This document shows positions 23,715 to 39,176 of a DNA stretch of 64,000 nt, piece after piece (the first letter of the stretch is position 1; every line of letters begins with the position of its first letter). The translations under genes and the position numbers were made by a program. Origin of the DNA: Hyphomicrobiales bacterium. Lineage in GTDB: Bacteria > Pseudomonadota > Alphaproteobacteria > Rhizobiales > Beijerinckiaceae. The DNA lies in NCBI GenBank assembly GCA_025351165.1, contig JANXWK010000005.1:1-64000 (forward strand). The letters run 5' to 3'. Under the pieces are notes generated by a model. The model saw only the letters and a list, made by a program, of their open reading frames with translations, made no database searches and had not been told where the DNA came from.

Positions 23715-25282
23715 TGAAAACCTTATTCTCTACATGTTCTTTTTTTGAGGTCTACAGGCTTAAAAGCAAAAATAAGATAATCTCCAAAATGTTGTTATTC
23801 AAAAAAGCCTCTGTGCCGTCCTTAATTATGGCTTCAGTCTGCCTAAGTCTGGTTGCCGCACCAAATTCAGGCTTTGCCCAGGAACGTTCAAACAAACCGT
23901 TTGATATGAAGATTGGTCCAACTCCAAAACTGGAAGCAAGTTCGCAGGATGCCGTGTCAGCACGCAAGATTGACCTTCAGCTGGGTAAATCAATCCTCCT
24001 GGATTTGCCACGCGATGCAAAGGAGGTTTTTGTAGCAAATCCTGCTGTAGCAAACGCCCTTGTGCGCTCGAGCCGTAAAATTTATGTCATAGGCGTTGCA
24101 ACTGGTTCAACGACAATTTTTGTAAATGATGCAGAAGGCAAGCAGATTGCTGTGCTGGACATGACAATTGCCAAAGAGCTTGGCAAAGAATTAAACGTGT
24201 TGCGCGATCTTATGCGTACAACATTTCCAACTGCACAGATTGATGTCAGAAGCGTTGGTAACTCCTTTGTCCTGAGTGGTTTTGTTGATAGCCCCTTGGA
24301 AGCACAGCGCGCGGTTGATATTGCCACAACGATGACAGCTGGTCTCAAAAGTGCGGACGGGAATGCAGGCGCAGGTGGAGTAAGCAGCACCTCAGTCGTT
24401 AACGCCTTGCAGGTACGTGGCCGCGATCAGGTTATGATCAAGGTAACAATTGCAGAAGTTCAGAAAACTGTTCTCAAGCGCCTGGGTCTTGATGTATCAG
24501 GAACATGGAAAGTTGGCTCATCTTCTTTTGGGCTGAACACTGCAGTCGAGCAGAAAAACCCCATTACTGTCAATAATCTGGATTTTAGCAGAACTGGAAG
24601 CTCGGCGGGCACCGCAACACTTCGCGCGCTTGAACAGCAAGGGGCCTACCATACTCTGGCAGAGCCAACCTTGACTGCGATTTCAGGTGAAAGCGCCAAG
24701 TTTTTAGCAGGTGGTGAAATTCCAATTGTTGTTCGTTCATGCTCAGCAACTGGCTGTACAGATACAATAACATACAAACCCGTTGGTGTGTCTTTGGCTT
24801 TTACACCGGTGGTTATGTCTGAGGGGCGCATATCGCTGCACGTTTCAACAGAGGTTACAGAAAGAGACGATAACAATTCTGTTTTGACCAACGCTTTGAA
24901 CATACCTGGGTTTAAAACAAGGCGCACAGAAACAACTGTTGAACTTCCATCAGGCGGATCAATGGCGACAGCAGGTTTGATACAGCAGTCAAGCGGTGTA
25001 ACAACAACAGGTTTGCCTGGTCTCATGAATATCCCGATTTTGGGGGCACTTGCCAGATCGCGCGAATTTCAGCGCAAGGAAACCGAACTGTTGATCGTGC
25101 TCACACCCTACATAGTCAAGCCCACTGAACAGAAAAATTTGCCACGTCCAGATGATGGTTTTGTTGATGCATCTGACCCTGCTGGTATGTTTTTAGGCCG
25201 CGTGAACAAGTTATATGGCGTGAGTGGTAACAGCCGCAATCTTGGAAGCTATCGGGGAAATGTTGGATTTATCACCGAATAA
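23714..25282 (+). CDS. cpaC: Flp pilus outer-membrane secretin CpaC/RcpA
   Basis: A 522-residue secretin forming the outer-membrane pore for the pilus. Order: signal peptide ending GFAQE (about residue 56), pilus N-domain (about 90-155, LDLPRDAKEVFVANP), BON-like region, then the secretin domain (about 290-470) with VELPSGGSMATAGL and VLTPYIV. ATG 23714 follows a very strong AGGAGG six bases upstream and overlaps the cpaB stop; this makes an unusually long N-terminal leader. An ATG at 23789 would give a standard signal peptide but lacks the site. Confidence 0.92.
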   Translation: MKTLFSTCSFFEVYRLKSKNKIISKMLLFKKASVPSLIMASVCLSLVAAPNSGFAQERSNKPFDMKIGPTPKLEASSQDAVSARKIDLQLGKSILLDLPRDAKEVFVANPAVANALVRSSRKIYVIGVATGSTTIFVNDAEGKQIAVLDMTIAKELGKELNVLRDLMRTTFPTAQIDVRSVGNSFVLSGFVDSPLEAQRAVDIATTMTAGLKSADGNAGAGGVSSTSVVNALQVRGRDQVMIKVTIAEVQKTVLKRLGLDVSGTWKVGSSSFGLNTAVEQKNPITVNNLDFSRTGSSAGTATLRALEQQGAYHTLAEPTLTAISGESAKFLAGGEIPIVVRSCSATGCTDTITYKPVGVSLAFTPVVMSEGRISLHVSTEVTERDDNNSVLTNALNIPGFKTRRTETTVELPSGGSMATAGLIQQSSGVTTTGLPGLMNIPILGALARSREFQRKETELLIVLTPYIVKPTEQKNLPRPDDGFVDASDPAGMFLGRVNKLYGVSGNSRNLGSYRGNVGFITE

Positions 25283-27380: not shown

Positions 27381-28865
27381 ATGTTTGGAAAAAGAGGCAA
27401 ATCTGACGGTACTGCTACAATATCTGGTCTAACGCAACCAAAGCAGGCATCATCTACACCAATTCCAAACTCCGCCTCGAATGCATCCCTTAATCCCGCT
27501 CGTGTCGCAGATGCACGCAGTAATAAAACCCATGAAATATCATCTCAGGTAATCGCAGATATTGAGCATAATAAGCCTGAAGAGTATTTTGTAACAAAAT
27601 CAATGATTTTTGGTGCATTGATAGAAGCAATTGACCTGTCCCAGCTTTCAAAACTGGATAATGATGGCGCGCGTGAAGAGTTGCGTGATATTATTAACGA
27701 AATTGTTGTCCTCAAAAATGTCGTTATGTCTATAGCCGAGCAGGAAGAAATGCTCGATGATATCTGCAACGACGTTTTGGGGTATGGGCCACTGGAACCT
27801 CTTCTGGCACGCGATGACATTGCAGATATTATGGTGAACGGGGCCAACCGGACATTTATTGAAACGCAAGGACGCATCCAGCTTACCAGTGTCAAGTTTC
27901 GGGACAACCAGCAATTAATGAATATCTGCCAGCGCATAGTCAGTAAAGTTGGCAGACGTGTTGATGAGTCTTCTCCCATATGCGATGCGCGCTTGATGGA
28001 TGGATCACGCGTAAACGTTATTGCGCCACCATTGGCGATTGATGGCCCTGTGCTGACAATTCGTAAATTTCGCAAAGACAAGCTTACACTTGACCAACTT
28101 GTAAGGTTTGGAGCAATTTCGCCAGAGGGTGCCCAAATACTGCAGATTATTGGCAAGGTACGGTGTAATGTTGTTATTTCAGGTGGTACTGGTTCGGGTA
28201 AAACAACACTTTTAAATTGTTTGACAGCTTACATTGAGCCAGATGAACGTGTTATTACATGTGAGGACGCAGCAGAGTTGCAGCTTCAACAGCAACATGT
28301 TGTACGTCTTGAAACACGCCCTCCAAACCTGGAAGGTCAAGGCGCGGTCTTCATGCGTGACCTTATCAAAAATTGCCTACGTATGCGACCTGAACGTATT
28401 ATTGTAGGTGAGGTGCGTGGCCCTGAAGCATTTGATCTGCTTCAGGCTATGAACACAGGCCATGATGGCTCAATGGGTACACTTCACGCCAACTCCCCCC
28501 GTGAATGTCTGTCTCGTCTTGAATCAATGATTACCATGGGAGGATTTTCTCTTCCCTCCAGGACTATCCGTGAAATGATATGTTCATCTATCGACATTAT
28601 TATCCAGGCAACCAGATTACGCGATGGGTCTCGCCGCATAACACATGTAACCGAAGTCATGGGCATGGAAGGTGATGTTATCATTACTCAGGATGTTCTT
28701 GTCTACGAGATTACGGGCGAGGATGCTAATGGCAAGCTTTTGGGCTCCCATAAATCGACTGGAATTGGACGTCCCAAATTCTGGGAACGCGCCAGATACT
28801 ACAATGAAGAAGGCAGATTGGCGGCAGCATTGGATGCTGCTGAAAAACTGGGTGAAGCAGCCTAA
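27381..28865 (+). CDS. cpaF: Flp pilus assembly ATPase CpaF/TadA
   Basis: A 494-residue type II/IV secretion ATPase powering pilus extension and retraction. The Walker A box is SGGTGSGKTTLLN (about 270-282). The Asp box, MRPERIIVGEVRGPE (Walker B region) and a His box (GHDGSMGTLHANSP) are intact. The N-terminal 60 residues are low-complexity. The symbol cpaF avoids confusion with the tRNA deaminase tadA, which is also in this window. Confidence 0.96.
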   Translation: MFGKRGKSDGTATISGLTQPKQASSTPIPNSASNASLNPARVADARSNKTHEISSQVIADIEHNKPEEYFVTKSMIFGALIEAIDLSQLSKLDNDGAREELRDIINEIVVLKNVVMSIAEQEEMLDDICNDVLGYGPLEPLLARDDIADIMVNGANRTFIETQGRIQLTSVKFRDNQQLMNICQRIVSKVGRRVDESSPICDARLMDGSRVNVIAPPLAIDGPVLTIRKFRKDKLTLDQLVRFGAISPEGAQILQIIGKVRCNVVISGGTGSGKTTLLNCLTAYIEPDERVITCEDAAELQLQQQHVVRLETRPPNLEGQGAVFMRDLIKNCLRMRPERIIVGEVRGPEAFDLLQAMNTGHDGSMGTLHANSPRECLSRLESMITMGGFSLPSRTIREMICSSIDIIIQATRLRDGSRRITHVTEVMGMEGDVIITQDVLVYEITGEDANGKLLGSHKSTGIGRPKFWERARYYNEEGRLAAALDAAEKLGEAA

Positions 28866-28899
28866 ATTAAAGTGATGTAAATTTAACGGAATTACAAAA

Positions 28900-29889
28900 A
28901 TGCTCGCTGACCTGCTAGATAACCCAATAATTTTTGCAAGCCTCATAGCAGCCTGTGGTGGATTGCTTGCCTATGCACTGATTTATCCGCTGCTGTCTGG
29001 AGAGGCAAGATCTCAAAAGCGCGTTGATAATTTTGCGGTTGCACCGAGGCGTTCAATGCGAAGCACCAGCATCACAATGGGTATGCGCAAGAAAAAAATA
29101 TCTGAAACTTTGAAAGATATTGAACAGAAACAACGGTCAAGCACACAGTTGACACTTGATGATCGTTTGCGTCATGCAGGACTTGACTGGACAAAAACAA
29201 AGCTGATTTTAATATCACTAGCAGCGGGATTATCTCTTGCAGGCCTCATTTTTATTTTCAAGAAAAATCCAGTTGCAGCATTGGTGGGTTTTATGATTGC
29301 TGGAGTCATATTACCCTTTTTCATATTGAACTACTTGCGAAAAAAGCGGACGAAAAAATTTGTAAGTGAATTTCCCAATGCTCTGGACATTATAATCAGA
29401 GGCGTCAAGTCAGGCCTTCCACTTGGGGATTGCCTTAAAATAATCAGTGTTGAAGCAGAAGAGCCCGTAAGTAGTGAATTTAAACATATCGTTGACATTC
29501 AACAGATGGGTGTCGGCATGGGCGAGGCATGCTGCGAAATGTACAAAAGAATTCCAGTGGTGGAAGCAAATTTTTTTGGAATTGTTATCCAGATACAGCA
29601 GAAGGCTGGTGGGAATCTCGGTGAAATATTAAGCGGTCTGTCAAAAGTCATTCGCGAACGACGCAAGATGAAGGGCAAGATTCTGGCAATGAGTATGGAG
29701 GCTGTTGCATCGGCCGGCATTATTGCATCCTTGCCTTTCATAGTCGGAATAATGGTTTTTTTAGCGGCACCGAATTACATAGAAAAATTATGGACAACTG
29801 ATGCAGGCTATAATGGTTTGCTGGCAGCAGCTGTCATGATGACAATAGGCACTCTGGTCATGAAAAAAATGATTAACTTTGATATTTAG
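28900..29889 (+). CDS. tadB: Flp pilus inner-membrane platform protein TadB
   Basis: A 329-residue GspF-family (T2SSF) protein with one N-terminal helix, a cytoplasmic T2SSF domain (SEFPNALDIIIRGVKSGLPLG, VVEANFFGIVIQIQQKAGGNLGEIL) and two C-terminal helices. It pairs with TadC to form the assembly platform driven by CpaF. It follows cpaF by 34 bp. Confidence 0.93.
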   Translation: MLADLLDNPIIFASLIAACGGLLAYALIYPLLSGEARSQKRVDNFAVAPRRSMRSTSITMGMRKKKISETLKDIEQKQRSSTQLTLDDRLRHAGLDWTKTKLILISLAAGLSLAGLIFIFKKNPVAALVGFMIAGVILPFFILNYLRKKRTKKFVSEFPNALDIIIRGVKSGLPLGDCLKIISVEAEEPVSSEFKHIVDIQQMGVGMGEACCEMYKRIPVVEANFFGIVIQIQQKAGGNLGEILSGLSKVIRERRKMKGKILAMSMEAVASAGIIASLPFIVGIMVFLAAPNYIEKLWTTDAGYNGLLAAAVMMTIGTLVMKKMINFDI

Positions 29890-29921
29890 ACCATTGAATT
29901 TTAATTTGGGGACGCGCGATC

Positions 29922-30887
29922 ATGTTTGGTGCTTTTGATGAGACAAAAATTATATATGCACTTGTGTTCGCTCTGTCTATTTCACTGGTTTTGTGGGTCG
30001 TAGCGACACAGTTTATTGAACGTGACGAACGTACAAAAAGAATGAAAGCCGTTGCACTTGAGCGTGAAAGTATTCGTATTCGTGAAAGGGAAAGGCTGCT
30101 TATTACTAAGGAAACAGCTGCAAGACGCGTTGGGCCAAAATCATACGTAAAAAAAATAGTTGAAAAATTCAATCTCAGTAAATGGCTTGGAACAGAAACG
30201 GCTAAAGCAAACCTCATTATGGCAGGCTATCGCAGTAATGGAGCGGAGTATGTTTTTCTTGTATTTAGATTGGTAACGCCCATAGTTCTGATGATTACAA
30301 CCATATTGTATATATTTGTTCTTTTCCCCATTAATCAAACTGCGATGGTAAAAGTTGGAGCTGTAATTGCGGCAATTTTTGTTGGAATCAAAATGCCGGA
30401 ATTCTTTTTATCCAATCAGATAAAAAAACGTCAGTTTTCGATGAAAAGGGCATTTCCTGATACTCTTGACCTTATGCTCATCTGCGTCGAGTCAGGTATG
30501 TCAATAGAGCATGCCTTTCGGAAAGTCAGTGAAGAAATAGGTATGCAGTCAATACCTATGGCAGAAGAGCTGGCTTTAACAACAGCAGAGCTGTCCTATT
30601 TGCCTGTGCGCAGACAGGCATTTGAGAATCTCTCTGTAAGAACTGGACTTTCGAACATCAGGGCAATTTGCACGGCCCTCATTCAGGCTGAAAAATATGG
30701 CACGCCTGTAGGAACAGCCTTGCGCGTGCTAGCTCAGGAAAACCGCGATGATCGTATGAACGAGGCAGAAAAAAAGGCAGCAGCCTTGCCGCCAAAACTG
30801 ACAGTACCCATGATCCTTTTTTTCCTCCCTGTTCTTTTTATAGTCATTCTGACACCAGCCCTTGTTCAGATCTTTAAATGGAAATAG
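29922..30887 (+). CDS. tadC: Flp pilus inner-membrane platform protein TadC
   Basis: A 321-residue GspF-family protein paralogous to TadB: KRAFPDTLDLMLICVESGMSIEHAF and a second core block YGTPVGTALRVLAQENRDDRM. It is the last pilus gene in the locus; no tadD, tadE, tadF or tadG follows here, as in the nine-gene Agrobacterium ctp locus. The following gene is an unrelated LysR regulator on the same strand, 29 bp away. Confidence 0.93.
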   Translation: MFGAFDETKIIYALVFALSISLVLWVVATQFIERDERTKRMKAVALERESIRIRERERLLITKETAARRVGPKSYVKKIVEKFNLSKWLGTETAKANLIMAGYRSNGAEYVFLVFRLVTPIVLMITTILYIFVLFPINQTAMVKVGAVIAAIFVGIKMPEFFLSNQIKKRQFSMKRAFPDTLDLMLICVESGMSIEHAFRKVSEEIGMQSIPMAEELALTTAELSYLPVRRQAFENLSVRTGLSNIRAICTALIQAEKYGTPVGTALRVLAQENRDDRMNEAEKKAAALPPKLTVPMILFFLPVLFIVILTPALVQIFKWK

Positions 30888-30916
30888 CCTAAGATAAACA
30901 AAACTGTGAAGATGAT

Positions 30917-31825
30917 TTGGGGCTTAGCTTGGACATTCGCTGGTTACAGGATTTTTTGACAGTTGCCGAAACTGGTAACTTTACGCGTGCAGCAGAAAAT
31001 CGCAATGCATCACAAGCAGCGTTTAGCCGTCGTATCCAGTCTTTGGAGGCTTGGCTTGGAGCAACCCTTATAGATCGCGGAGTGTTTCCAACGCGCCTTA
31101 CCCCCCAAGGAGAACGCTTCAAGGAATATGCAGGAGAAATTCTTCGCCGTGTAATGGATGCAAGGAGTGAGCTCACAGGTAAGCCAACGCAGGACCATAT
31201 CCGTGTAGCTGTTCCCTATGCAATTGCAACATCAAGCCTGCCTGCATGGTGGTCAAACTGGTCTAAGGATCGTAATATAGCCTGTAGTATCGTCGTTGGC
31301 AATGTACATGACATGATGACAGCGCTTGTATCAGGTGGCGTTGACATATTGATATGCTTTCATACAGCGCAGCAACCCATACAGCTGGATCCTGCACGCT
31401 ACGAACGTCTCGATTTGAAAAATGAATCCATTAGGCCTTACGCCTCTCAAAAGCTGGTCGAAAAGGGCCATGCTACATTGCCAGGACACCCAGCCAAACC
31501 GCTTCCACTGCTTATGTATTCCCCAGGCGTATATTTTGCCCGAATGACAGAGCTTATTATTGATGCTGCGCCTCAAAAACTAATAGGCGAATGTGTAATA
31601 GAAAGCGACATGTCGGATGTATTGCGCGAAATGGCCATAAAAGGGTTTGGTATCGCATGGCTCCCGGAATGCACTGTTGAAGCTGCTTCTGGACATGATC
31701 TTGTCCCAATCGATGATGGCAGCTGGAGCCTTTGTATTTCAACAGTTGCAATACGTGCTCATGTTAATGAGCGACCAGCGGTCAATCGGCTTTGGACAAA
31801 ATTGCAGTCATTTACCACACTCTAA
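30917..31825 (+). CDS. LysR-family transcriptional regulator
   Basis: A 302-residue regulator with an N-terminal winged helix-turn-helix (WLQDFLTVAETGNFTRAAE, then SQAAFSRRIQSLE) and a C-terminal effector-binding domain. No ATG is available near the N-terminus; TTG 30917, or TTG 30929 directly before DIRWLQ, must serve as start. Lying 29 bp after tadC, it may be partly read from the pilus operon. Its stop abuts the first copy of the duplicated hairpin element. Target genes are unknown. Confidence 0.87.
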   Translation: MGLSLDIRWLQDFLTVAETGNFTRAAENRNASQAAFSRRIQSLEAWLGATLIDRGVFPTRLTPQGERFKEYAGEILRRVMDARSELTGKPTQDHIRVAVPYAIATSSLPAWWSNWSKDRNIACSIVVGNVHDMMTALVSGGVDILICFHTAQQPIQLDPARYERLDLKNESIRPYASQKLVEKGHATLPGHPAKPLPLLMYSPGVYFARMTELIIDAAPQKLIGECVIESDMSDVLREMAIKGFGIAWLPECTVEAASGHDLVPIDDGSWSLCISTVAIRAHVNERPAVNRLWTKLQSFTTL

Positions 31826-31826
31826 T

Positions 31827-31967
31827 AAAAAATAGCCATTCAGAACATTTTAAGGTTTCTGAATGGCTATTAAGTGCGGCTTAACAAGAGAGGAGAAATC
31901 TCTGTTAAACTATATATAAACCCCTATTCTTACATGAACCTTACAAGATTAAAAAAATATCACTTTT
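31827..31967 (-). ncRNA. Duplicated hairpin element, copy A (candidate small RNA/terminator)
   Basis: A perfect 15-bp stem, AATAGCCATTCAGAA (31831-31845) with TTCTGAATGGCTATT (31857-31871). On the minus strand it is followed by six T, so it reads as a Rho-independent terminator in that direction. Upstream (minus sense) a second stem, TTAAC-AGAGA against TCTCTTGTTAA, shows a TTTCTCC loop. The flank to about 31967 matches copy B. The element could be a small RNA or a decayed folC 3' end plus terminator. Copying is certain; the RNA call is inferred. Confidence 0.5.
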
Positions 31968-32105
31968 TTTAAATTAAATTTAGACGGAAAAACCCTCATG
32001 TACAAAATTTACTTTGGTGATTGTACATATTATCTCAACTGCACCACTCGCAGTGATTTATGAAAGGCAATTAGTGTTCAAAAATAAGGATTTACTTGCA
32101 CGGCT

Positions 32106-32246
32106 AAAAAATAGCCATTCAGACACTGAGGAGGGATAAACATCTGAATGGCTATTAAGTGCGGCTTGACAAGAAAGGAGAAATTCCCTGCCGCTTTCAG
32201 TGCTAAGCGCCCAACCTTACAGGAACCTGACAAGATTAAAAAAATA
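32106..32246 (-). ncRNA. Duplicated hairpin element, copy B (candidate small RNA/terminator of folC)
   Basis: This is the second copy. The stem AATAGCCATTCAGA (32110-32123) with TCTGAATGGCTATT (32143-32156) is followed on the minus strand by six T. Its loop there contains CCCTCCTC, an anti-Shine-Dalgarno-like motif. A second hairpin (GCGGC..GCCGC in plus sense, 32160-32200 region) holds TTTCTCC. It directly follows the folC stop and probably terminates that operon; it may also yield a 3'-UTR-derived small RNA. The spacer between copies (31968-32105) holds no gene. Confidence 0.55.
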
Positions 32247-33557
32247 TTACTTTTTCTGATTTATTTTAAGAACTTCTCCTGCAAGGTAAAGCGAGCCACA
32301 TATAATAATCCTGGGAGCGTTAACCCAGCTTCTTGCGGATAAAAAATGTAAAACGTCGTTTATGTCACCAACTACAGCAGAGTTTAATCCGGATTTGCGG
32401 GCAATCTGGGCAATTTCAGTTGCAGGGCGGCAGTTAGAGTGTTCAGGTATATCAATTGCATAAAGTTCCTGGGCAAGACCAGAAAACGACCTGAGAAAGG
32501 CCTCGGTTTCCTTGTGGGCCAACATTCCAACTATCAGAATGAGCGGTTTGGACAGTTTTTCTTCCAACTCCCCAACCGAATCAGCAAGAGCCTTGCCCCC
32601 TGCTGCATTATGGCCTCCATCAAGCCAGATTTCAGCACCTTTTGGTGCAGTTTTTACCAGATTGCCTTGATTGAGCCGCTGCATTCTGGCAGGCCATTCA
32701 ACTTTGGTTAGCCCAGCTTCAATGGCCGGAACAGGAAAATCAGGTCCAAAACAGGTACGTAAAGCTGCAATGGCGGTAGCTGCATTATTATACTGGTGTC
32801 TTCCAAACAGTTTTGGCAGTGGCAGGTCGAGCAACCCGTGCGCGTCTTGATAAATCAGCCTTCCATGCTCTTCAAAACACGTATAGTCTTGATCTGCAAT
32901 TACAAGCGGGGACCCAATACGCGCAGACTCATTCTCAATGAGCTGCCGCACATCTTCACTTTGAGTAGCGATAATGGCTTGAACATTCCGTTTTAATATT
33001 CCTGCCTTCTCATACGTAATCTTGTCAATCGTATCACCAAGATATTCCCTATGGTCAATTGAAACAGGTGTGATAACGCTGGCAAGCGGGGTCTCAATAA
33101 CATTTGTTGCATCATATCGACCTCCAAGACCCACCTCAAGGAGCAGTATGTCAGCAGGCACTTCACTGAACAGTAAAAATGCTGCAACAGTTGTCATTTC
33201 AAAAACGGTGATTGGCGCGCCATTATTTACAGCTTCGCAACGTTTAAATGCATCAATCAGCTGATCTTCATGCACAAGCTGACCAGCAAGCCGGATGCGC
33301 TCGTTGAAATCCACCAGATGGGGTGAGGTGTAGACATGCACTTTTTTGCCAGCAGCTTCCAGCATTGCGCGCATGAAGGCAATTGTCGATCCCTTGCCAT
33401 TGGTACCAGCCACATGAATGACAGGTGGCAAAGATTTATGCGGACACCCAAGTTTTTCAAGCAGGTTGAGGGTGCGCTCCAGTTTTAAATCTATAAGTTT
33501 TGGATGCAGGGCTAAAAAGCGCTGCATGTAGTCAGCAGATGTCAATAACGCGTTCAC
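32247..33557 (-). CDS. folC: Bifunctional folylpolyglutamate/dihydrofolate synthase
   Basis: A 436-residue Mur-ligase-fold enzyme adding glutamate to folates. [14 protein letters not shown] is the P-loop (about residues 49-62), and [14 protein letters not shown] and [10 protein letters not shown] are the other family blocks. The ATG overlaps the accD stop by 4 bp. This is the last gene of a trpA-accD-folC operon on the minus strand. Confidence 0.95.
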
Positions 33558-34441
33558 GCAGCATCCTGATCAGGAGAAGCTAGATTGTTGATTTTTGGCG
33601 TTTTGGTCAAAACGTTCAGCAGAGTGCTAAGAGTGCTGCGCATGTCTTTGCGTGGCACCACCATATCTACCATCCCATGGTCTTTTAAATACTCTGCCCG
33701 CTGAAAACCCTCTGGCAGTTTTTCACGTATGGTTGCTTCAATAACGCGTGGACCCGCAAAACAGATAAGTGCACCAGGCTCTGCAATATGGACATCCCCA
33801 AGCATGGCATAAGACGCTGTAACACCTCCCGTTGTTGGGTTGGTGAGCACAACAATATAAGGCTTTTTACTGAGTTTAAGACGTTGGACAGCAACTGTTG
33901 TGCGTGGTAGCTGCATGAGCGAGAAAATCCCCTCCTGCATGCGTGCACCACCTGATGCGGTAAAAATAATATAGCCAGTGCCCCGTCGAACAGCTTCTTC
34001 CATGCCAGCAATAATGGCTTCGCCCGCGCCCATACCAAGGGATCCAAGAATAAAATCAGAATCCTGTACACTGATGGTAACTGGTGTGCCATCCAGTGTG
34101 CCATAGCCTGTGCGCACACATTCGTGCATGCCTGTGCGGGTACGGGCATCCTTCAGACGGTCTGTGTAACGCTTTGCATCCTTGAACTTGAGGGGGTCAG
34201 TGGGCACATCGCGTACTTTGATTTCATCAAACTGCCCACCATCAAACATATGCTTCAATCGTGCGTCGGAGGGCATACGCATATGATAGCCAGAGCCTGG
34301 AATGACATTAAGGTTCTGTTCTACATCCTTGTGAAACACCATTTGCCCTGTTTCAGGGCATTTGATCCAGAGGTTATCAGGCGTTTCACGTCTTAAAAGA
34401 CTTTGGATTTTAGGGCGAACAATGGAGGTGATCCAGTTCAT
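33554..34441 (-). CDS. accD: Acetyl-CoA carboxylase carboxyltransferase beta subunit
   Basis: A 295-residue subunit that pairs with AccA to make malonyl-CoA. [22 protein letters not shown] and [17 protein letters not shown] are the carboxyltransferase signatures. The N-terminal zinc ribbon seen in E. coli AccD is degenerate: only C28 of the four cysteines remains (KCPETGQ, then VIPGSGYH). I recall the same in other rhizobial AccDs. It lies 2 bp after trpA and overlaps folC by 4 bp. Confidence 0.95.
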
Positions 34442-34443
34442 GA

Positions 34444-35268
34444 TTAACCTTTATCTTTTATGGCCAAAGCCAGTGATCTTACTAAATCCAGCACATTCTT
34501 TACAGTGTCTGGTGTTGCCTGACCAGTCTCATCAAGCGATTTTTGTAAGCAATCAATAAGGGCAGAGCCGACAACAACGCCCTCAGCACCCTTTGATATT
34601 GCTTTTGCATCTTCTGGCGTCTTAACACCAAACCCAACGACAACAGGTAGATCCGTATGTCGTTTTATACGCGCAACAGCAGCAGACACCAAGGAATAGT
34701 CTGGCGTTGCAGTGCCTGTAATACCATTAATTGAGACATAATAGACAAAACCGGATGTATTGCTGAGCACTTTGGGCAAGCGGGCTTCATCTGTCGTTGG
34801 TGTTGCCAGGCGTATAAAACTTAAACCTGCCTTGAGAGCTGGAAGGCAAAGCTCACTATCTTCTTCAGGCGGCAGATCAACAATAATCAGCCCATCTACA
34901 CCAGCTTTTTTGGCATCATTTAGAAATGTTTCAACCCCACATACATAGACAGGATTGTAATAACCCATGAGAATAACAGGTGTAATACTGTTGATTGTCC
35001 GAAACCAGGCAATATCCTCAAGGGTTTTTCGCAAAGTTTGCCCAGCTTTAAGTGCACGCAACCCTGCTTTTTGTATGGCAGGGCCATCAGCCATTGGGTC
35101 AGAAAATGGCATTCCAAATTCAATAATGTCACTGCCTGCAGCAGGCAATGATTCAAGCAGTGCCCGTGCGGTCTCACGGTCAGGATCCCCTGCCATGATG
35201 TATGTAACAAGCGCTGCGCGTTTTTCACTTGCAACAGTAGAAAATGTGTCAAAAAGGCGTGTTGTCAT
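34444..35268 (-). CDS. trpA: Tryptophan synthase alpha subunit
   Basis: A 274-residue TIM barrel releasing indole from indole-3-glycerol phosphate. [15 protein letters not shown] carries the catalytic Glu, [12 protein letters not shown] the catalytic Asp, and [11 protein letters not shown] binds phosphate. Normally trpB lies just upstream; here trpA heads the operon and trpB is about 10 kb away on the other strand. No leader peptide rich in Trp codons or attenuator was seen upstream. Confidence 0.96.
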
Positions 35269-35472
35269 GGTTGGCTTCTAGCACAGCTTATAAAAAAGGG
35301 GAGAGGTTTTTAAAGCCCTGCGCATCCTTTAAAAAGATATGTCAAAAAATCCAGGCCAATAAGCAACATTAGAACTTTTAAAATCAATTAAAATAGATAT
35401 GTGATTTGAATGCTTTAAAACAAGATGTGCATCCAGTTTAAAATTAGAAGAATTATAAAGTAAAAACAAACA

Positions 35473-35501
35473 GTTGACATCTTTTTTTTAGGCACGTTAC
35501 A
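35473..35501 (+). promoter_or_regulatory. Candidate promoter of the histidine phosphatase gene
   Basis: A consensus-like TTGACA (35473-35478) is followed after 17 bases by TTACAG (35496-35501), a poor -10 element. It lies about 30 bases before the ATG, after AT-rich DNA. Weak support. Confidence 0.3.
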
Positions 35502-35533
35502 GGGCATTCATATGATCTTGAAAGGACATTGAA

Positions 35534-36169
35534 ATGCTTAAAAAATTACTTTTTCCAGTTTTGGCAGGGGCTGCACTAACTTTGGTTCTTGCCACATCAA
35601 CAATTGCACAGCCCCAAATTACGAGTGACCGCCTGTTGGCTAAAGCTTTGCAGCAGGGTGGATACGTTATTTATTTTCGTCATTTTCAAACAAGCGCTGA
35701 CTATAACGACCAGCATACCCTGACATTGGGCCAATGTGCGACGCAGCGCCAGCTTATCGCAGCTGGAGCTGCACAGGCAATTGATGTAAGGGAAGCGTTT
35801 GTAAAAGCCAACATTCCAGTAGGGAGTGTTTTATCCAGCCCGTTTTGCCGCGCATGGCAGTCCGCAGATTTGGCTTTTGGCCGTCACACAGTCGTTGATG
35901 GTCTGAAATTGCCACCATCCAAAGTCTACACTGATGCTGATAAGCAAACAATGAAAACAGCACTTTTGCCTCTTGTCTCGACACCCCCTGAACAAGGTAA
36001 AAACACGATCATCATGTCACATGACGATAATATCCCCACAATTGGAGGGCCTGATGTGAAAAAACAGGGTGATGCAGTTGTTTTCAAACCATTGGGAAAT
36101 GGTAAGTTTGAAGTTGTTGCAGAACTAAAAGCTGCCAGATGGGCCAAGCTTGCCAGAACTGCGCAGTAG
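35534..36169 (+). CDS. Secreted histidine phosphatase family protein
   Basis: A 211-residue protein with a cleavable signal peptide (ending STIAQP). The catalytic RH motif is R49-H50 in YFRHFQTSAD. SSPFCRAWQSA supplies the second Arg and MSHDDN the second His, so the phosphatase core appears complete. It belongs to the periplasmic branch of the family; substrates are unknown. AAAGGA lies eight bases before the ATG. It is a single-gene unit between trpA (divergent) and the porin gene. Confidence 0.85.
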   Translation: MLKKLLFPVLAGAALTLVLATSTIAQPQITSDRLLAKALQQGGYVIYFRHFQTSADYNDQHTLTLGQCATQRQLIAAGAAQAIDVREAFVKANIPVGSVLSSPFCRAWQSADLAFGRHTVVDGLKLPPSKVYTDADKQTMKTALLPLVSTPPEQGKNTIIMSHDDNIPTIGGPDVKKQGDAVVFKPLGNGKFEVVAELKAARWAKLARTAQ

Positions 36170-38803: not shown

Positions 38804-38916
38804 CTGTTATATTGAACGCTCTACATATGGCCTGCATAAACCTTAATGAATCATAAATTTTATCACTTGCTTTAAAGAGTTTTGGCTTGACTCAGCGTGC
38901 CCTTTGCTTTTTGTAA

Positions 38917-39097
38917 GCCTTGATGGTTCTCGAAAGAGATCAAAAGGGAACGTGTGTAGGAATATTTTATATTCGATGCCATGGCTGCCCCCGCAACTGT
39001 ATGTAGTGAGCTGATATTCGTTGACACCACTGGCGTTCGCGCTGGGAAGGTTGGATAAAAGCATTGACCTATAAGCCAGGAGACCTGCCATCAAGCC
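38917..39097 (+). promoter_or_regulatory. Cobalamin (adenosylcobalamin) riboswitch
   Basis: This matches the cobalamin aptamer in order: the closing stem CTTGATGG (38919-38926) with CCATCAAG (39088-39095), AAAAGGGAACG, the B12-box-like GCTGCCCCCGCAACTGT (38984-39000), CCACTGG, GGGAAGG and AGCCAGGAGACCTGCC (39074-39089). It stands directly upstream of btuB and should switch it off when cobalamin is plentiful. Confidence 0.96.
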
Positions 39098-39176
39098 GTG
39101 GTCACGTGCGATAACTTTGGGCGGGGTGTCCTGGGGTGGTAGAAAAACATCTGAAGCCTTCAGGTGCTTGAACCAT

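What the first reader, a model, noticed from the sequence alone, without database searches (positions are those of the whole stretch)
31826..32255. Tandemly duplicated hairpin element after folC: candidate pair of anti-Shine-Dalgarno small RNAs
Two copies about 280 bp apart share the same order of elements: a 14-15 bp stem (AATAGCCATTCAGA..TCTGAATGGCTATT), AAGTGCGGCTT-ACAAG, a second hairpin, and an AT-rich flank that in copy B runs into the last codons of folC. In both, the stem is perfect although the loops differ in length and sequence, so pairing is being conserved. On the minus strand each hairpin ends in T6, and the loops expose CUCC-type motifs (CCCTCCTC and TTTCTCC), a known feature of alphaproteobacterial regulatory RNAs. 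I recognise no known family.
Basis: partly seen in the sequence, partly recalled or inferred. Interest (0 to 1): 0.65.

Follow-up and report, generated by a model that had tools for sequence, protein, structure and literature searches.

The report
Twin small RNAs in secretion regulon
Two neighbouring copies of a short, self-terminating RNA gene carry the same promoter switch that this bacterium appears to use for dozens of genes of its host-injection (type III secretion) system, so they are probably regulatory RNAs made when the bacterium meets its host.

Summary
On the minus strand each copy (31826-31984; 32105-32271) reads: A/T tract, promoter box, 5' hairpin with a UUUCUCC loop, AAGCCGCACUU linker, 14-bp terminator hairpin plus T6. 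No Rfam family matches. The "AT-rich flank" is a promoter element with 39 exact hits in this 2.29-Mb genome (reversed pattern 0). Of the other 37 sites, 35 precede an ORF (random 52%) and two are cut by contig ends. The products are mostly orphan proteins. The genome has a rhizobial-type T3SS, and the box aligns gap-free over 30 bp with the TtsI-bound tts box of Sinorhizobium NGR234 (0 of 20,000 permutations as similar). Only the window copies combine box, terminator and no gene. Best reading: a duplicated small RNA co-regulated with T3SS substrates. The best single target lead is the leader of a Gly/Ser-rich regulon protein, with 13 perfect base pairs to copy A (maximum 11 in 100 shuffles). 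Regulon mRNAs as a group are weaker partners than controls, the apparatus operons read lack the box, and the activator is not identified. Transcription and pairing are untested. No homologue was found in 297 other family genomes.

The parts
31827..31908 (-). small RNA gene A (predicted transcript about 80-87 nt; 5' end inferred, +/-10 nt)
   Evidence: box, -10-like TTTA and terminator positions; no transcript data
32106..32195 (-). small RNA gene B (predicted transcript about 89-95 nt; 5' end inferred)
   Evidence: no transcript data
31917..31946 (-). tts-like promoter box of A (30 bp; 19-bp core 31929-31947)
   Evidence: exact pattern hit, PWM score 42.0 bits
32204..32233 (-). tts-like promoter box of B (30 bp; 19-bp core 32216-32234)
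   Evidence: PWM 38.3 bits
31948..31984 (-). A/T tract upstream of box A (A-run, then T-run)
   Evidence: shared with other box sites
32235..32271 (-). A/T tract upstream of box B, overlapping the 3' end of folC
31881..31908 (-). 5' hairpin of A; loop UUUCUCC at 31892-31898
   Evidence: folds; pair counts against B
32168..32192 (-). 5' hairpin of B; UUUCUCC at 32177-32183; in the shorter transcripts an alternative fold pairs GCGGC with GCCGC of the linker
   Evidence: hairpin; alternative
31872..31882 (-). linker AAGCCGCACUU of A; mostly unpaired
   Evidence: identical in both copies; unpaired probability
32157..32167 (-). linker AAGCCGCACUU of B; partly paired in the MFE fold
31875..31887 (-). 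13-nt stretch of A perfectly complementary to the leader of the C34:21110 gene (L055)
31827..31871 (-). intrinsic terminator of A (14-15 bp stem, T6)
32106..32156 (-). intrinsic terminator of B (14 bp stem, T6; loop with CCCUCCUC)
32247..33557 (-). folC, upstream neighbour on the same strand
   Evidence: TIGR01499 363.5 bits, cut-off 162.65
30917..31825 (+). convergent LysR-type regulator gene
   Evidence: PF00126 and PF03466; none of the 25 NCBIfam families shown (of 45) reaches its cut-off

Best explanation
The element is a tandem duplicate of one small-RNA gene. Each copy is transcribed on the minus strand from its own promoter, whose control box is a variant of the rhizobial tts box, and ends at its own intrinsic terminator after about 80-95 nt. 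The same box precedes about 50 genes for mostly orphan proteins, which I take to be substrates of this genome's type III secretion system. The two RNAs should therefore be made together with those proteins when the activator (a TtsI-like OmpR-family regulator) is on. They most likely act by base pairing, through the linker AAGCCGCACUU and the UUUCUCC loop. The best single candidate is the leader of a Gly/Ser-rich regulon protein (13 perfect pairs to copy A), which would give feedback inside the regulon. Shown: anatomy, shared box, its match to the tts box, presence of a T3SS, rarity of box-terminator sites. Inferred: transcription, 5' ends, the activator, the substrate status of the proteins, the pairing and its sign.
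For: Box: 39 exact hits in the genome, reversed-pattern control 0; a slightly narrower pattern has 0 hits in 59 relatives. 35 of 37 non-window exact sites have an ATG ORF of at least 60 aa within 260 nt (random 0.52); with a Shine-Dalgarno 24 of 37 (random 0.13); the other two sites are cut by contig ends. 15 of 15 one-mismatch sites precede ORFs of at least 110 aa, one of them with a TTG start. tts box: gap-free over 30 bp; similarity 8.0 at register 0, best of the other 49 offsets/strands 2.63, 0 of 20,000 column permutations; literature consensus from passages of PMC3009519. T3SS: SctV 805.6 bits, cut-off 692.25; SctJ and SctQ over cut-off; SctN 57% identical to NGR234. Terminator-like hairpin within 260 nt: 5 of 39 exact sites and 0 of 22 looser ones; only the window copies have no ORF with it. 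Target: 13-nt match, null maximum 11 in 100; best linker partner of A among 51 regulon and 64 control leaders (-21.6 against -16.3 and -16.2).
Against: No transcript data. No homologue of the RNA in 297 other family genomes, so no evolutionary test of the structure beyond two copies. Regulon start regions are on average weaker partners than controls (one-sided p for 'stronger' 0.9987 for A, 0.9999 for B). For B two control leaders beat L055. The 13-bp duplex (-20.0) nets only about -2.9 kcal/mol after opening costs of 8.7 and 8.4; the extended duplex nets +1.8 for A and +9.2 for B. C31:15442 holds another 13-nt complement to A, antisense to a gat operon. The L055 leader holds a terminator-like hairpin before the pairing site. 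The apparatus operons read here (nopB-position/sctJ and sctV) have no box of 12 bits or more upstream, unlike nopB of NGR234. In the loci held, tblastn found no match to ten NGR234 proteins, NopB, NopX, NopL, NopP and RhcC1 among them. The best TtsI-like regulator (C17, 40-41% identical) lies away from T3SS genes, keeps its phosphorylation Asp (by eye) and is closer in identity to unrelated regulators.
Confidence: 0.75

Rival explanations
1. Not autonomous RNAs: the hairpins are folC transcription terminators (duplicated), and any short RNA is a processed folC 3' end.
For: On the same strand, box B begins 13 nt beyond the folC stop codon, so folC transcripts would run into both hairpins; both are good minus-strand terminators.
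Against: Each copy has its own full promoter box, shared with tens of gene starts elsewhere; a pure terminator would not keep the loop and linker identical.
Confidence: 0.12
2. General anti-Shine-Dalgarno regulators in the style of alphaproteobacterial NfeR1/AbcR, acting mainly on transport and metabolic mRNAs through CUCC loops; the T3SS promoter only sets when they are made.
For: UUUCUCC loop in both copies, CCCUCCUC in copy B; control start regions are stronger partners than regulon ones.
Against: Any C/U-rich RNA pairs with Shine-Dalgarno sites, so the control result is weak evidence; the identical linker is not explained; the best linker partner of A is a regulon leader.
Confidence: 0.3
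3. The RNAs are decoys or sponges that bind a protein (for example an RNA-binding regulator) rather than mRNAs.
For: Two near-identical copies and a repeated loop would suit titration.
Against: Only one or two such motifs per RNA; no motif of a known RNA-binding protein was tested.
Confidence: 0.08
4. The boxes are a dispersed mobile repeat and the hairpins a chance passenger.
For: Many near-identical copies in one genome, none in 59 relatives searched.
Against: 35 of 37 exact sites point at an ORF start nearby (two are cut by contig ends), as do 15 of 15 one-mismatch sites; similarity ends at the promoter, and the box matches a known activator site of another bacterial family.
Confidence: 0.03

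Closest known systems
InvR of Salmonella SPI-1 (PMC11925239; abstract and section list seen)
   Same: A small RNA switched on by the activators of a T3SS regulon, acting back on a leader inside that regulon.
   Different: HilD/HilC-activated, target is the activator gene hilA; no sequence or promoter relation was looked for or seen here.
HrpG/HrpX-controlled small RNAs of Xanthomonas (PMC3771888; passages seen: eight of 24 sRNAs)
   Same: Small RNAs as members of a plant-associated T3SS regulon; sX13 of the same paper works through C-rich loops.
   Different: sX13 itself is independent of HrpG/HrpX; other activator and other promoter signal.
tts-box/TtsI regulon of rhizobia (PMC3009519, PMC3973906, PMC5793154; passages seen)
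   Same: Same 30-bp box layout upstream of T3SS substrate genes; T3SS core genes in the NGR234 order.
   Different: Members named in those passages are protein genes; here two small RNAs; GTAAG rather than GTCAG at 87% of sites; activator not identified.
NfeR1 / alpha-r14 family (PMC10746234; passages seen)
   Same: Short alphaproteobacterial RNA with anti-SD loops, part of a feedback loop.
   Different: Three hairpins each with CCUCCUCCC; LsrB/NtrC control; no Rfam match here.
AbcR1/AbcR2 (PMC7486931, PMC8844928; passages seen)
   Same: Tandem homologous pair beside a LysR gene.
   Different: AbcR lies downstream of vtlR/lsrB and AbcR1 needs that regulator; here the LysR gene is convergent and the promoter box is tts-like.

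Membership tests
alpha-r14 (NfeR1) | three hairpins each with CCUCCUCCC | tested here: not met
   two hairpins; no CCUCCUCCC in A or B, only CCUCCUC in one loop of B (sequences; definition)
alpha-r14 (NfeR1) | match to an Rfam covariance model | tested here: not met
   no such family among the 8 matches at E up to 10 or at gathering
AbcR (alpha-r15) | match to an Rfam covariance model | tested here: not met
AbcR (alpha-r15) | located downstream of vtlR/lsrB | tested here: inconclusive
   a LysR gene is adjacent but convergent; orthology to VtlR/LsrB was not tested
tts-box regulon | tts box upstream | tested here: met
   30-bp gap-free match, 0 of 20,000 permutations; the consensus equals 7 of 8 (NGR234) and 9 of 10 (B. 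japonicum) highly conserved positions, the exception being C5, which is A at 87% of sites
tts-box regulon | genome encodes an Rhc-type T3SS | tested here: met
   SctV, SctJ and SctQ over cut-offs; SctN, SctR, SctS, SctT and SctU match NGR234, SctU below its NCBIfam cut-off; a T3SS secretin was not found in the loci held
tts-box regulon | box upstream of the nopB operon | tested here: not met
   no site of 12 bits or more before the nopB-position ORF or sctV
tts-box regulon | TtsI ortholog present | tested here: inconclusive
   best match C17, 41%, 179 bits, next 108.6; not specific to TtsI
tts-box regulon | activator-dependent transcription | not testable with these tools
   needs RNA
base-pairing trans small RNA | own promoter and intrinsic terminator, no ORF | tested here: met
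   sequence level only; the ATG ORF that starts inside B is 21 aa and runs past the terminator
base-pairing trans small RNA | base pairing with a target in the cell | not testable with these tools
   prediction only

The most novel reading that the evidence does not exclude
These are the first small RNAs driven by a tts-type box: a duplicated RNA that the T3SS activator makes together with its effectors, and that feeds back on the leader of a co-regulated secreted protein by a bipartite contact (13-nt anchor plus anti-SD loop), timing or capping one substrate within an effector regulon of about 50 genes.
Probability: 0.27. Interest if true: 0.75.

Novelty: new variant of a known kind. Interest (0 to 1): 0.58.

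Why it matters
Small RNAs inside T3SS regulons are known in Salmonella and Xanthomonas. For the TtsI/tts-box systems of rhizobia and relatives my searches of the open-access library showed none (one search showed 15 of 34,567 papers; passages of PMC5793154 and PMC4842269 checked). If real, this adds a post-transcriptional layer to symbiosis-type T3SS control. The box that reveals it also yields about 50 candidate T3SS substrates in a small-genome relative of Beijerinckiaceae.

Tried and rejected
Rfam at gathering and at E up to 10: at the locus only 8 sub-threshold matches, best E 0.96. DNA relatives of the RNA in 99 other genomes: none. Covariance model R1 in 298 family genomes (drawn from a larger group, stricter filters): own copies, plus one hit at E 0.74 taken as chance. 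VtlR/AbcR synteny as the explanation: dropped once the box was found; orthology of the LysR gene not tested. General anti-SD action on the regulon: not supported. Genome sites like the anchor complement, up to 1 mismatch: 8 hits, 2 being the RNA genes and 1 the L055 leader; of the other 5, L175, L177 and L180 lie on the sense strand inside ORFs, L178 and L176 lie antisense to ORFs. Pfam on 30 of the 37 box-driven ORFs at E up to 0.05: one match over its cut-off, DUF1521 in L074 (not scanned: L004, L073, the 92-aa ORF of L028, L039, L047 and two contig-end fragments). NCBIfam on 10 box-driven or cluster proteins: matches for SctJ, SctQ and SctU only. The five NGR234 boxes used as the yardstick are 5 of 9 pattern matches on that locus, kept because they stand before T3SS genes; the other four were dropped before the test. 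The first structure string given to the pair counter was out of register for the long stem and was repeated correctly. The first genome-contig scan with FolC found nothing; AccD gave named relatives. The terminator scan saw less than 260 nt downstream at 2 of 39 exact sites and at 2 of 22 looser sites (contig ends).

Full report
What is there. On the minus strand each copy has the order: A-run and T-run tract, 19-bp core box CTTGT(A/C)AGGTTC(A/C)TGTAAG, a TTTA or CTTA motif, a 5' hairpin with UUUCUCC in its loop, the invariant linker AAGCCGCACUU, and a perfect 14-bp hairpin running into six T. Copy A folds far better than dinucleotide shuffles (z -4.55), copy B less so (z -2.77). Rfam knows neither copy. 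The long stem is identical in both copies, so it carries no compensatory evidence. The 5' hairpin has 2 of 10 pairs changed on both sides, but with two sequences this is not significant (124 of 500 shuffles reach it), and 4 of 10 pairs are broken in B in that alignment. For the shorter transcript of B the best fold is another one, which pairs part of the linker.

The flank is a promoter. A DNA search of the window's own genome (2,288,463 bases, 65 contigs) with copy A gave 26 matches, 23 of them to the AT-rich flank only. Lined up, they share the box and mostly a spaced A/T tract, and lie before start codons. The pattern CYTGTMAGGYTNVTGTAAG has 39 exact hits in the genome and none for the reversed pattern. 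A slightly narrower pattern has none in 59 relatives, including the one same-genus genome, which is 82% complete. Of the 37 sites other than the two in the finding, 35 have an ATG ORF of at least 60 aa starting within 260 nt; random positions do in 52% of 3000 trials. With a Shine-Dalgarno required it is 24 of 37 against 13%. The remaining two sites stop at contig ends 154 nt after the box. All 15 one-mismatch sites precede ORFs of at least 110 aa, one with a TTG start; the seven two-mismatch sites are mixed, against 2 hits of the reversed control at that stringency. The box-end to ATG distance has a median of 70 nt in 51 genes. In a log-odds scan of the 64-kb window the only hits of 12 bits or more are the two boxes of the finding.

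The regulon is tied to type III secretion. Thirty of the 37 box-driven proteins were scanned with Pfam; one passed its cut-off, L074 with DUF1521, a domain I recall from the Bradyrhizobium T3SS protein NopE (recalled, no call). N-termini of 49 box-driven proteins are rich in S, T, N and Q (0.313 against 0.213 in 64 control proteins). The genome has a non-flagellar SctV (805.6 bits, cut-off 692.25) besides a second homologue below the cut-off, presumably flagellar, and an SctJ over its cut-off. On contig C5 sctJ, an ORF at the place of nopU, sctL (weak), sctN, an ORF at the place of nopZ, sctQ, sctR, sctS, sctT and sctU follow in the order of NGR234. Two boxes stand 2-4 kb before this cluster (C5:54238 and 55803), and boxes lie 6-8 kb on either side of sctV on C34 (5088 and 21110). 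Against the link: no box of 12 bits or more precedes the nopB-position ORF or sctV themselves, and NopB, NopX, NopL, NopP, NopU, NopZ, RhcC1 and three more of the 21 NGR234 proteins had no match in the loci held. A SctV over the cut-off occurs in 10 of 100 genomes searched, own included; the same-genus genome has only a sub-cut-off match.

The box is a tts box variant. The published consensus is tcGTCAGcttntcGaaAGctnngccncnta for NGR234 and tcGTCAGcTtntcGacAGctagnccnnntA for B. japonicum (passage of PMC3009519). The 39 sites give TTGTAAGGTTGGTGTAAGGTTGGGGnTTTA. I compared them with five NGR234 boxes, which are 5 of 9 pattern matches on the T3SS locus of the plasmid, kept because they stand before T3SS genes. 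The similarity is 8.0 with no gap or shift; the best of the other 49 offsets and strands is 2.63, and none of 20,000 column permutations reaches it. I had noticed the register by eye before the test; the offset scan is the control for that. The candidate activator is unsettled. NGR234 TtsI best matches a C17 regulator (41%, 179 bits; next 108.6). It lies between an epimerase-like gene and a hypothetical ORF, with a TlyA-like gene beyond (names by eye), keeps the receiver Asp (by eye), and has plasmid relatives of higher identity than TtsI.

Why small RNAs. Among 39 exact sites a terminator-like hairpin within 260 nt occurs five times: the two window copies, the long leader of L055, one inside the ORF of L049, and one at L051 that is inside the ORF if it starts at an early codon and in the leader if it starts at the ATG 197 nt after the box. 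None of 22 looser sites has one; four of the 61 sites could be read only partly. Only the window copies lack a gene after box and terminator. Predicted transcripts are about 80-95 nt. The 5' ends are inferred from the position of the box and TTTA.

What they may pair with. The longest perfect complement between RNA A and 37 regulon leaders is 13 nt (UUGUUAAGCCGCA with TGCGGCTTAACAA, starting 59 nt before the ATG of L055). In 100 Markov-shuffled leader sets the maximum was 11. L055 is the best linker partner among 51 regulon and 64 control leaders for A (-21.6 against -16.3 and -16.2); for B it is best in the regulon (-17.5) but two control leaders reach -17.7 and -17.6. Genome-wide, 8 sites match the anchor with at most one mismatch: the two RNA genes, L055, three inside ORFs and two antisense to ORFs; one of the antisense sites (C31, gat operon) also gives 13 perfect pairs with A. 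L055 is the only one of these in a box-driven leader. L055 is Gly/Ser-rich and has no Pfam or NCBIfam match. The extended duplex of A reaches the Shine-Dalgarno of L055 with the UUUCUCC side as a second contact, but its net energy after unfolding is +1.8 kcal/mol, and +9.2 for B; the 13-bp contact alone nets about -2.9. Against a regulon-wide role, start regions of 37 regulon genes are weaker partners than those of 70 control genes. I therefore commit to co-regulation with confidence and to the L055 target only as the best lead.

Where it lives. The nearest named AccD is 87% identical, in a Beijerinckiaceae MAG (JAIELD010000079.1, locus L092). That contig has 64% G+C against 45% for the window, and a blastn of window bases 28001-36000 against it gave no hit over the RNA copies. 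The RNA model finds nothing convincing in 297 other family genomes. The RNAs and this form of the box are thus specific to this lineage as far as sampled.

Known kind or not. InvR (PMC11925239, abstract) and the HrpG/HrpX-dependent RNAs of Xanthomonas (PMC3771888, passages) show that T3SS regulons can include small RNAs. For tts boxes I found none: 'tts box' with 'small RNA' and 'rhizobi' gives one paper, where the term stands in a reference; 'TtsI' with 'sRNA' gives six papers by listing, none about such an RNA by title; a broader search matched 34,567 papers of which 15 were shown, and added PMC5793154, whose passages mention tts boxes for protein genes. Subscription papers are not covered.

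Noticed in passing
L055 (G000:C34:21110-21300): Leader of the Gly/Ser-rich regulon gene holds a terminator-like hairpin with T6 directly before the 13-nt anchor site: possible attenuator or third short RNA.
   Followed up: partly
G000:C5:54046/54238 and C34:20915/21110: Two strong boxes each have a degenerate (two-mismatch) box 192-195 bp upstream on the same strand, followed by no ATG ORF over 25 aa.
   Followed up: no
L037 and L064: Two box-driven proteins share an ATIAHELMH.LT zincin-like motif (by eye; weak M48 match for L037 below the Pfam cut-off); possible metalloprotease substrates.
   Followed up: no
G000:C23 and C62 contig ends (L031, L028): Nearly identical box plus MSTINNAAPVQTQ start at two contig ends: probably a duplicated gene that broke the assembly.
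   Followed up: no
38907-39106: Cobalamin riboswitch, 107.8 bits (gathering 31.5).
   Followed up: no
23981-25279 and 28900-30887: Secretin-like stretch (35% to RhcC2 of NGR234) and two TadB/TadC-like ORFs (names by eye): probable Tad pilus locus in the window.
   Followed up: no
window against L092: Window G+C 45% against 64% in the nearest named relative's contig: the genome seems AT-shifted, and at 2.29 Mb smaller than the same-genus genome (3.5 Mb).
   Followed up: no
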